Positions 51,791 to 53,487 of a stretch of 64,000 nucleotides of DNA are shown here, piece after piece (positions within the stretch are counted from its first letter, which is position 1; every line of letters starts with the position of its first letter). The stretch is from Mesorhizobium xinjiangense (GTDB lineage: Bacteria; Pseudomonadota; Alphaproteobacteria; Rhizobiales; Rhizobiaceae), in NCBI RefSeq assembly GCF_009749525.1, contig NZ_WOAC01000002.1, positions 248,001 through 312,000 on the forward strand, written 5' to 3'. The position numbers were made by a program, and so were the translations under genes. A model generated the notes under the pieces. The model was given only the letters and a program-made list of their open reading frames with translations. It was not told the origin of the DNA and searched no databases.

Positions 51791-53164
51791 ATGGCCAAGC
51801 AAAAGGTACTGCTGGAATTCGAATCGGAAGGGGCCGCTCCGTTCTCGATGAACGAGGCCGCCGTCGAATCGCCGCTCGAGGCGGTGCGGCAGGCGCAATC
51901 CTTCGTCGACCAGGTGGCCGGCATGGGCATCGAGCTCGACGAGTTCTGTGCGCCGGTTCCCATGATGATCGGCCCGGGTGGCGGTTCGGCTCCGCCGGCT
52001 CTGGAAACCTTCGCCACCGAAGGCCGCGCCGCTGCCCGCGATGAAGTCGCTTCGCATACGGTCGTCGTTCCTGCCGAGGTGCCGCTTGCCGCCATGGAGC
52101 AGCTTCAGGGCCGGCCCGAGCTCAAGGTCTGGCCCAATTCGCCGATGGCGCTCTTCGACAATGTCATTGACGAGGCCCGCTCGGATTCGGGGCTCGACTG
52201 CCGGCCCTTCAAGCCGGCGGTCGAAATCGAGGTGTTGCGCGCGCTGCTTGCCGTCGATGCGCTGTGGAACGAGGGCTATCGCGGGCAGAACATCGTTGTC
52301 GGCATCATCGACGAAGGCGTGGACGGGTCCGTTTATCCGGTGATCGGCGGCTTTTCGCGGCCCGATGCCGGCCTGCAGCCGGGTGGCGCGCCCGTCACCA
52401 GCCATGGCTCCATGTGCGCGGCCGACGTGCTGGTCGCCGCCCCGCATTGCCGGCTCTACGACTATCCCTTCCTTGGCGTGCCGCGCTCAGGCGGCGCGCT
52501 GCAGATGTTCCAGGCCGTGCTCAACCAGCGCGGCATCGACGGTACGCCGCACATCACCAACAATTCCTACGGTTTCGTCGGTGTGCCGGATCCGGCGCAG
52601 TTTCCAGATCACGAGGTGCACAACATCGACCATCCCGTTCACCGCAAGGTGCGCGAGGTGGTCACTGCCGGCGTCACCTGCTTCTTCGCCGCCGGCAATT
52701 GCGGCGAGAACTGCCCGAGCGGCGCCTGCCACCATTCGGGCATCGGCCCCGGACGCTCGGTCCACGCCTCCAACAGCCTCGCCGAGGTCATCACGGTGGC
52801 TGCCGTCAACAGCCGTCACGAACGCATCGGTTATTCCTCGCAGGGGCCGGGCATGTTCGAGCCGCAAAAGCCCGACATCGCCAGCTACAGCCATTTCTTC
52901 GGCAATTTCGGGCCGGGCCGACCGGCCGATGGCACGAATTTCGACAATGGCACCTCCGCCGCCACCCCGGTCGCGGCAGGCGTCGGGGCACTCCTGATGA
53001 GCGCGATTGCGGGCCTCACGCCCGACATGATGAAGCGCGCCCTGACCGGCTCGGCGACTAATCTCGGCCGCACCGTCGGCTGGGACGCCGGTACGGGCCA
53101 CGGCGTCCTCAATGCGGCGGCCGCCTACGGATGGCTGCGCGGGCAAGGTGTCCCCGTGGCGTGA
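51791..53164 (+). CDS. S8-family (subtilisin-like) serine peptidase without signal peptide
   Basis: 457 residues. The catalytic triad is D174 (GIIDEGVDG), H205 (TSHGSMC) and S389 (NGTSAATPVAAG), with oxyanion asparagine N303 (AAGNCG). A domain of about 122 residues comes before the catalytic part and looks like an inhibitory pro-domain: a beta strand (KVLLEF), helix (SPLEAVRQAQSFVDQV), then HTVVVPAEV and VWPNSPMALF. No secretion signal is visible, so it is likely cytoplasmic. The Cys pairs around C304-C313 are unusual. A 74-residue gene that resembles this pro-domain follows after 98 bp. Confidence 0.93.
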   Translation: MAKQKVLLEFESEGAAPFSMNEAAVESPLEAVRQAQSFVDQVAGMGIELDEFCAPVPMMIGPGGGSAPPALETFATEGRAAARDEVASHTVVVPAEVPLAAMEQLQGRPELKVWPNSPMALFDNVIDEARSDSGLDCRPFKPAVEIEVLRALLAVDALWNEGYRGQNIVVGIIDEGVDGSVYPVIGGFSRPDAGLQPGGAPVTSHGSMCAADVLVAAPHCRLYDYPFLGVPRSGGALQMFQAVLNQRGIDGTPHITNNSYGFVGVPDPAQFPDHEVHNIDHPVHRKVREVVTAGVTCFFAAGNCGENCPSGACHHSGIGPGRSVHASNSLAEVITVAAVNSRHERIGYSSQGPGMFEPQKPDIASYSHFFGNFGPGRPADGTNFDNGTSAATPVAAGVGALLMSAIAGLTPDMMKRALTGSATNLGRTVGWDAGTGHGVLNAAAAYGWLRGQGVPVA

Positions 53165-53262
53165 AACCGACGGCCCCAACCGGCTTTTGGTAGCGGGCGG
53201 CTGTGGGATAGACGGGAAATGATCTATAATGACGGCAGTGCTTGCGGCCGTCGGAGGACCGA

Positions 53263-53487
53263 ATGGACCAGTGGCTCGTGACTTTTCCGGCAACCATGTC
53301 ATTGGATGCGTGCCTCACGATCGTCCGTCAGGCGGGCGCGGAAGAGCTTGCACAATCCGAGGCCGTGCCGCTCGGCGGCGACGAGATCGTCATCCAGATC
53401 GAGGCCGGGCCCAATGCCGTGGAGGCGCTGCGCGCCAGCGAACATGTTCTGGGCGTGTTTCCGAACTCGGAGATGAAGCTTTATTGA
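53263..53487 (+). CDS. Small protein resembling a subtilisin pro-domain/I9 inhibitor
   Basis: 74 residues. Strand QWLVTFPA, helix SLDACLTIVRQAGAEEL, strand DEIVIQIEA, helix NAVEALRASE and a C-terminal VFPNSEMKLY follow the I9-like pattern. The tail closely matches VWPNSPMALF in the pro-domain of the neighbouring protease (113-122 there). GGAGG lies 5 nt before the ATG at 53263. It probably acts in trans as inhibitor or folding helper of that protease; this is inferred from sequence and position. The last 7 bp overlap the convergent PaiB-like gene. Confidence 0.8.
   Translation: MDQWLVTFPATMSLDACLTIVRQAGAEELAQSEAVPLGGDEIVIQIEAGPNAVEALRASEHVLGVFPNSEMKLY

What the first reader, a model, noticed from the sequence alone, without database searches (positions are those of the whole stretch)
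51791..53487. Cytoplasmic subtilisin paired with a separate copy of its pro-domain
The S8 protease has no signal peptide but keeps a built-in N-terminal pro-domain ending VWPNSPMALF. A separate 74-residue gene 98 bp downstream has the same beta-alpha-beta-alpha-beta order and ends VFPNSEMKLY. Strand, helix and tail positions correspond along the whole length. A second, trans-acting pro-domain could keep a cytoplasmic protease silent or help it fold, in the manner of a protease-inhibitor pair. I know of no described system with an internal pro-domain plus a paralogous stand-alone copy in this family, though related I9 inhibitors exist.
Basis: partly seen in the sequence, partly recalled or inferred. 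Interest (0 to 1): 0.7.

Follow-up and report, generated by a model that had tools for sequence, protein, structure and literature searches.

The report
Intracellular subtilisin with stand-alone pro-domain partner
A bacterial protein-cutting enzyme that appears to stay inside the cell is encoded beside a small protein shaped like the enzyme's own built-in safety plug, and the two genes recur together in distant bacteria, so the small protein is most likely a separately made inhibitor of the enzyme.

Summary
An S8 protease (51791-53164; intact triad, no visible signal peptide, N-terminal pro-domain ending VWPNSPMALF) is followed 98 nt later by a 74-codon gene ending VFPNSEMKLY. The pairing is not chance: of 32 distinct family members collected, 27 have the small gene beside the protease. 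In one draw of 389 genomes, 17 of 19 with the protease and 0 of 370 without it had the small gene, always beside the protease. [quoted passage not shown] E only 0.01). Sequence similarity to the internal pro-domain is detectable only through the tail, which tracks its own subfamily. One congener has an empty site there. Best reading: a separately encoded, product-like inhibitor (perhaps also foldase) of the neighbouring protease. Binding and inhibition are untested; the protease fold prediction failed. My searches listed no bacterial S8 case. New variant of a known kind.

The parts
51791..53164 (+). S8 subtilisin-like protease gene, 457 aa, no visible signal peptide
   Evidence: D174, H205, N303, S389 present
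51791..52156 (+). N-terminal pro-domain region of the protease (residues 1-122)
   Evidence: position before the catalytic domain; the family's profile of this region matches the small-protein profile (hhalign 86.5%), driven by the tail; its fold was not confirmed
52127..52156 (+). pro-domain tail VWPNSPMALF (residues 113-122), expected to lie in the active-site cleft
   Evidence: role inferred from subtilisin propeptides
52283..53104 (+). Peptidase_S8 catalytic domain (residues 165-438)
52700..52729 (+). CGENCPSGAC cysteine cluster (C304, C308, C313) directly after oxyanion N303
   Evidence: C304, C308, C313 and C137 present in 31 of 32 family members
53253..53257 (+). GGAGG, likely ribosome-binding site of the small gene, 5 nt before the ATG
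   Evidence: read
53263..53487 (+). stand-alone pro-domain-like protein, 74 aa
53455..53484 (+). tail VFPNSEMKLY (residues 65-74); the C-terminal Tyr sits at the P1-equivalent position
   Evidence: Pfam I9 match of residues 50-73 to profile positions 58-81 of 82 (below threshold); residues 71-74 are of low confidence in the model

Best explanation
The two genes form a self-contained protease/inhibitor module. The protease is made in the cytoplasm with its own N-terminal pro-domain, which folds it and is probably clipped after the aromatic tail residue (inferred). The neighbouring 74-residue protein folds like a subtilisin propeptide, docks on the same face of the catalytic domain and lays its C-terminal tail into the cleft like a cleavage product, its last residue (Tyr74) in the S1 pocket. 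Because it is made separately, it can be kept in excess over the protease and re-inhibit molecules whose own pro-domain has been lost, so a potent endopeptidase can be held silent in the cell until the inhibitor is degraded or diluted. Shown here: pairing, adjacency, predicted fold of the small protein, tail matching by subfamily, co-inheritance, intact catalytic residues. Inferred: binding, inhibition, processing, cytoplasmic location, and the signal that releases the protease.
For: Co-occurrence 17 of 19 against 0 of 370 genomes; without the 6 genomes whose small protein was itself in the search profile, 11 of 13 against 0 of 370. Predicted fold with the highest TM-scores of the 50 hits listed to propeptides 1spb_P and 1scj_B. 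A profile of 20 small proteins, run on 3424 six-frame segments, gave 33 rows of small genes; the next 28 rows (E 0.002-0.73) were 26 proteases of the family (21 distinct) and 2 others; all 10 protease alignments printed reach the pro-domain tail, two of them weakly. Subfamily-matched profiles agree (A-A 90.2%, B-B 81.4%), crossed ones do not (0.6%, 0.4%); catalytic-segment controls reach at most 8.2% and reversed controls at most 0.3%. The tail position aligned with the helix-capping Asp of the BPN' propeptide is D or N in 32 of 32 pro-domains (BPN' register recalled). Distances of protease and small protein correlate (r 0.95, n 27; r 0.93, n 23; 0 of 5000 permutations). The only member with a destroyed triad (L038) has no partner. 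Propeptides inhibit cognate subtilases in trans, and tail swaps strengthened stand-alone I9 inhibitors (PMC10580911, passages).
Against: No binding or inhibition data. The Foldseek E-value is weak (0.0099), no hit reaches 0.001, and a ribosomal chain ranks first by E-value; residues 71-74, the end of the tail, have pLDDT under 50. Pfam I9 is not met (12.6 bits against 21.2) and only 1 of 14 members reaches E 1; PDB sequence searches found no propeptide with the small protein alone and at best a chance-level one with the profile. Two members with intact triads (L032, L039) have no adjacent partner; none was found genome-wide for L032, while the genome of L039 holds the pair L008 elsewhere. Divergent L007 and L011 also lack it in the stretch held. 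The protease model failed (pLDDT 33), so the internal pro-domain fold and docking were not confirmed. Co-inheritance alone would give a high distance correlation, and the tail difference between subfamilies may be a single historical split.
Confidence: 0.7

Rival explanations
1. The small protein is mainly a trans-acting foldase: it helps the protease reach its active fold and inhibition is secondary.
For: Propeptides of mesophilic bacterial prosubtilases act as chaperone and inhibitor (PMC10580911, abstract start and passages). In group B the built-in tail mostly has a poor P1 residue (F/Y in 2 of 23 paired members), so the built-in domain might not suffice.
Against: The members aligned already carry an N-terminal pro-domain-like region; two members with intact triads have no adjacent partner.
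Confidence: 0.14
2. A conflict module: the protease is a cell-damaging effector (against phage or as an addiction toxin) and the small protein is its antidote, moving as a two-gene cassette.
For: Sporadic distribution (1 of 61 genomes, own included; 3 of 385 in the class draw), a two-gene insertion against one congener's empty site, mostly different neighbours in the loci read.
Against: No further gene was seen to travel with it across clades in the loci read; for the protease only generic S8 and weak IetS/IteS matches to defence models, none for the small protein; no match in the phage collection at E 1e-12 and none of 4 viral-contig stretches confirmed. No defence island was looked for.
Confidence: 0.1
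3. The small protein is a substrate or precursor that the protease matures (signal peptide or RiPP-like).
For: Adjacent gene, tail that fits the cleft, and in group B residues beyond the P1-equivalent (GPP in 16 of 23) that could be cut off.
Against: The whole protein is a predicted compact propeptide fold; in the window, L006 and L037 nothing lies beyond the P1-equivalent residue. Exporter or modification genes were not searched for systematically.
Confidence: 0.05

Closest known systems
Plasmodium SUB1 and SUB1-ProM (PMC6993865, abstract and passages)
   Same: S8 protease with its own propeptide plus a separately encoded propeptide-like protein at a locus adjacent to subtilisin genes; inhibition shown there; fold recognised by modelling.
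   Different: Eukaryotic, parasitophorous vacuole; here bacterial, no visible signal peptide, a two-gene module found in different classes and phyla.
SpeB-Spi of Streptococcus pyogenes (C10 family; PMC2873492, passages)
   Same: Bacterial protease gene juxtaposed and co-transcribed with a specific inhibitor that is a propeptide analogue.
   Different: Cysteine protease of another family; SpeB is a secreted enzyme (recalled).
Stand-alone I9 inhibitors POIA1, yeast proteinase B inhibitor, Arabidopsis SPI-1, and Toxoplasma MIC5 (named in passages)
   Same: Small gene products with propeptide fold; for the two fungal ones the tail governs potency.
   Different: All eukaryotic; adjacency to the target protease gene is not described in the passages read.
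Bacillus intracellular subtilisin Isp1 with IPI/BsuPI (PMC3901451, passages) and ISPs (PMC6220982, passages)
   Same: Intracellular subtilisin that must be kept silent; a separate inhibitor protein has been reported.
   Different: ISP propeptide is typically 16-20 residues with a LIPY/F motif; IPI has an immunoglobulin-like fold.

Membership tests
Peptidase family S8 (PF00082) | profile match above curated cut-off | tested here: met
   81.6 bits against 21.8
Peptidase family S8 (PF00082) | Asp/His/Ser triad and oxyanion Asn | tested here: met
   D174, H205, S389, N303 in the window protein and aligned in 31 of 32 members; the exception is L038
Inhibitor family I9 (PF05922) | profile match above curated cut-off | tested here: not met
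   12.6 bits against 21.2; 1 of 14 members at E 1 or better
[quoted passage not shown]
   pLDDT 78 model with this order; TM 0.77/0.80 to 1spb_P, E 0.0099; predicted, not solved
Inhibitor family I9 (PF05922) | inhibits a subtilase through the active-site cleft | not testable with these tools
   needs purified proteins; no complex was modelled
Intracellular subtilisins (ISP) | short 16-20 residue pro-peptide with LIPY/F motif | tested here: not met
   about 120-residue N-terminal region without LIPY or LIPF (read; definition from PMC6220982)
Intracellular subtilisins (ISP) | no signal peptide | tested here: inconclusive
   no signal peptide by inspection of the N-terminus; no predictor was run
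Known anti-phage proteases (PADLOC, IetS) | match to a system model together with its partner gene | tested here: inconclusive
   only generic subtilase (E 9e-12) and weak IetS (E 0.006 at best) matches for the protease, none for the small protein; no partner ATPase was searched for

The most novel reading that the evidence does not exclude
A bacterial intracellular subtilisin family in which the two pro-domain jobs have been split between two genes: the built-in domain folds the enzyme but in group B has mostly lost a good P1 residue (F/Y in 2 of 23 paired members), while the separate protein keeps it (F/Y in 16 of 23, in all 16 as P-[FY]-GPP, which may resist cutting) and serves as the true inhibitor. 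The pair moves between phyla as a two-gene cassette, and loss of inhibitor by stress or infection would unleash general proteolysis in the cell.
Probability: 0.2. Interest if true: 0.78.

Novelty: new variant of a known kind. Interest (0 to 1): 0.57.

Why it matters
How a subtilisin is kept silent inside a bacterial cell is known for few enzymes (Isp with a short propeptide; the status of IPI as an inhibitor was questioned). A recurrent two-gene family with a matched stand-alone pro-domain gives a small, expressible system to test whether folding and inhibition by a propeptide can be separated, and what releases such a protease. It would also be, as far as my searches (open-licence papers only) could tell, the first bacterial S8 counterpart of Plasmodium SUB1-ProM.

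Tried and rejected
Fold of the full protease with a three-row alignment failed (pLDDT 33); nothing is built on it. PDB sequence searches with the small protein or its profile gave only chance-level hits, among them one extracellular serine proteinase of 112 residues at E 0.7. The scan for the small protein in genome contigs confirmed none of 393 pattern matches by tblastn, because it diverges fast; the protease query found two loci. A viral role was considered and not supported: no phage record matched at E 1e-12 and none of 4 stretches in viral contigs was confirmed. A separate promoter for the small gene: no promoter-like site was found; the one terminator-like site is inside the small gene, with 1.4 expected by chance. 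Chance resemblance of two short tails was rejected by the co-occurrence and subfamily-matching tests. The whole-length homology claim was weakened by the tail-removal test. Limits: the large whole-genome draws scored only 4 or 5 first-look candidates per genome for the protease and 14 for the small protein; cut-offs differed between calls; the draws overlap and are not summed; 16 of the 27 pairs were first met in one class-level draw, so members are not independent; 6 of the 17 small-protein genomes were represented in the query profile; the regular expression that located the small-protein tails demanded N, D or S at the cap position, so the 26 of 27 D/N count there is not an independent test (the pro-domain count is by alignment column). 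Small-gene starts in relatives were chosen by eye; subfamily A was set by eye and agrees with catalytic-domain identity to the window (64-79% for the other three members, 31-39% for all the rest).

Full report
What is there. The window holds, on the + strand, an S8 protease gene (51791-53164, 457 aa) and, 98 nt later, a 74-codon gene (53263-53487). The protease matches Peptidase_S8 over residues 165-438 at 81.6 bits and keeps D174, H205, N303 and S389. Before the catalytic domain lies a region of about 120 residues ending VWPNSPMALF. The small gene has GGAGG five nucleotides before its ATG and ends VFPNSEMKLY. Neither N-terminus looks like a signal peptide; this is by inspection, no predictor was run. 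In the own genome the small protein has no second copy (the two further hits have E above 0.5).

The pairing is real. The protease query in genome contigs gave two named relatives, at 67% and 57% identity to the window protein over the alignment, in a Rhodobacteraceae record (L005) and a Solirubrobacteraceae MAG (L006). Both have a small gene directly downstream that ends in the same kind of tail. Records of Streptomyces akebiae (L009) and Nonomuraea gerenzanensis (L008) in the plasmid collection have it too, more diverged. Whole-genome searches, own genome or the centre genome counted in, found the protease in 1 of 61 relatives (E 1e-20), 3 of 385 of the class (E 1e-25), 2 of 299 of the class of G446 (E 1e-50), 5 of 396 of its phylum (E 1e-60) and 19 of 389 of the class of G791 (E 1e-60). 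The draws overlap and are not summed. I collected 32 distinct members, leaving out duplicate loci (L001, L004, L012-L015). In 27 the small gene is adjacent: 25 downstream and 2 upstream (L037 with a 30 nt gap, L016 with about 617 nt; found only by the profile). In the stretches held it is missing from L007, L011, L032, L038 and L039. Of the 27 small proteins 20 made up the profile and 7 were found with it.

Co-occurrence. In the draw of 389 genomes the small protein was found in 17 at E 1e-5 or better. All 17 are among the 19 with the protease, and each hit lies beside the protease (positions); none of the other 370 genomes has it (Fisher p 8e-28). Six of the 17 genomes were represented in the small-protein profile; without them it is 11 of 13 against 0 of 370 (p 1e-19). 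Genomes are related, so the p-values overstate independence, and only the best few candidates per genome were scored.

The pair is an accessory unit. Among 61 genomes (own plus 60 relatives) only the own genome has either gene at the cut-offs used. In the congener G001 the gene for anhydromuramic acid kinase (anmK; gene names here are recalled from sequence) is followed 22 nt later by the convergent PaiB-like gene (L058); the flanks align with the window up to 51633 and from 53547 on. The window thus has about 1.8 kb more at this place, holding just these two genes. Of the three congeners examined, L057 has anmK without the PaiB-like gene next to it in the ORFs listed, and in L059 no PaiB-like ORF was detected by my pattern, so one of three shows the clean empty site. 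GC of the insert is 0.656 against 0.636 for the window, so composition gives no sign of recent arrival.

Fold of the small protein. AlphaFold2 with three sequences gave pLDDT 78 and the order E2-9, H14-24, E35-38, E41-48, H50-58, E64-67, with residues 71-74 under 50. In the PDB, Foldseek ranks the subtilisin BPN' prosegment second by E-value (1spb_P, E 0.0099, TM 0.77/0.80, rmsd 2.4) and 1scj_B sixth (TM 0.76/0.79). A ribosomal chain, by the neighbouring hits protein S6, is first by E-value (0.0076) but with TM 0.51/0.42. No hit reaches E 0.001; of 1286 matches at E 10 or better I saw the first 50, in which the two propeptides have the highest TM-scores. I read this as a ferredoxin-like fold whose closest geometry is a subtilisin propeptide. 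Pfam I9 is not met by score (12.6 bits against 21.2; 1 of 14 members at E 1 or better), so the protein works like an I9 inhibitor by anatomy but is not filed as a Pfam I9 member by sequence.

Relation to the built-in pro-domain. BLASTP finds nothing between the two window proteins. The profile of 20 small proteins, run over 3424 six-frame segments of the loci held, gave 33 rows of small genes (duplicates counted); the next 28 rows, at E 0.002 to 0.73, were 26 rows of the family's proteases (21 distinct of 32) and 2 other segments. All 10 protease alignments that I printed reach the pro-domain tail, those of L032 and L039 only as weak second domains. Profile-profile comparison gives 86.5% for small against pro-domain, at most 8.2% for the catalytic segments and at most 0.3% for reversed controls. 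Split by subfamily, group A (window, L005, L006, L018) matches its own pro-domains at 90.2% and group B its own at 81.4%, while crossed comparisons give 0.6% and 0.4%. With the tails cut off all three matches fall to 5.1% or less. So what the two proteins share is above all the tail, and the tail changes together in both. This is what a common binding site would enforce, but it amounts to one main split (A against B) and could also reflect history; I count it as strong but not decisive.

Tail anatomy. In the 32 pro-domains the position that I align with the helix-capping Asp of the BPN' propeptide is D or N in all. In the 27 small proteins it is D or N in 26 and S in 1, but the expression that located those tails demanded N, D or S there. 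Six residues on, at the P1-equivalent, the small proteins have F or Y in 19 of 27, the pro-domains in 6 of 32. In the window, L006 and L037 the small protein ends exactly there. In group B the small proteins have F or Y in 16 of 23, in all 16 followed by GPP, while the paired pro-domains have F or Y in 2 of 23. The BPN' register is recalled; the Pfam match of residues 50-73 to profile positions 58-81 of 82 agrees with it but is below threshold. The difference in P1 quality suggests that in group B the separate protein, not the built-in domain, is the better plug. That is inference.

Co-inheritance and losses. Distances of catalytic domains and small proteins correlate at r 0.95 over 27 pairs and 0.93 within 23 group B pairs, with 0 of 5000 permutations as high; travelling together would suffice to explain this. 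One member, L038, has lost D174, H205, N303 and the cysteine cluster, and no small protein was found in its genome: consistent with an inhibitor being needless for a dead enzyme. Against a strict need, L032 and L039 have intact triads and no adjacent partner; no small protein was found in the genome of L032, while the Nonomuraea record of L039 also holds the pair L008.

How it most likely works. A cytoplasmic subtilisin made as a zymogen with its own pro-domain, plus a second, separately translated propeptide mimic that binds the same face and tail groove and keeps the mature enzyme silent in trans. Shown: pairing, adjacency, predicted fold, matched tails, accessory two-gene nature. Inferred: location, binding, inhibition, self-cleavage, trigger. 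The attempted protease model failed, so docking was not modelled.

Comparison with what is known. Three eukaryotic stand-alone I9 proteins and TgMIC5 are summarised in PMC6993865 (passages), whose own subject, SUB1-ProM, is the nearest match: a separate propeptide mimic encoded at a locus adjacent to subtilisin genes and a potent inhibitor of SUB1, which has its own propeptide. SpeB-Spi is the bacterial parallel in C10 cysteine proteases (PMC2873492, passages). The ISP enzymes are silenced by a propeptide of typically 16-20 residues (PMC6220982, passages), and IPI has another fold (PMC3901451, passages). My literature searches for a bacterial S8 case listed none; they cover open-licence papers only. 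Verdict: a new, recurrent bacterial variant of a known kind.

Noticed in passing
L038:1495-2682 (minus strand): A pseudoprotease of this family: catalytic D, H and oxyanion N replaced, cysteine cluster missing, and no small partner found in its genome.
   Followed up: partly
window 52700-52729: A run of three cysteines (NCGENCPSGAC) right after the oxyanion Asn, plus C137, present in 31 of 32 members: a possible metal or disulfide site in a protease without signal peptide, unexplained.
   Followed up: partly
window 53481 to about 54100 (minus strand): A PaiB-like FMN-binding gene (name recalled) converges on the small gene and overlaps its end; PaiB is recalled as a regulator of protease production in Bacillus. 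It sits beside anmK in congener L058 without the pair, so the neighbourhood is probably coincidence.
   Followed up: partly
L037:478-2985: Reversed gene order (small gene upstream) and a protease with a C-terminal extension ending in what looks like a peptidoglycan-binding repeat (by eye); L016 also has the small gene upstream and a C-terminal extension.
   Followed up: no
L024, L030, L031, L034 downstream of the small gene: A P-loop kinase-like ORF (VVSGPPGAGKST or similar) recurs 274-384 nt after the protease end, just past the small gene.
   Followed up: no
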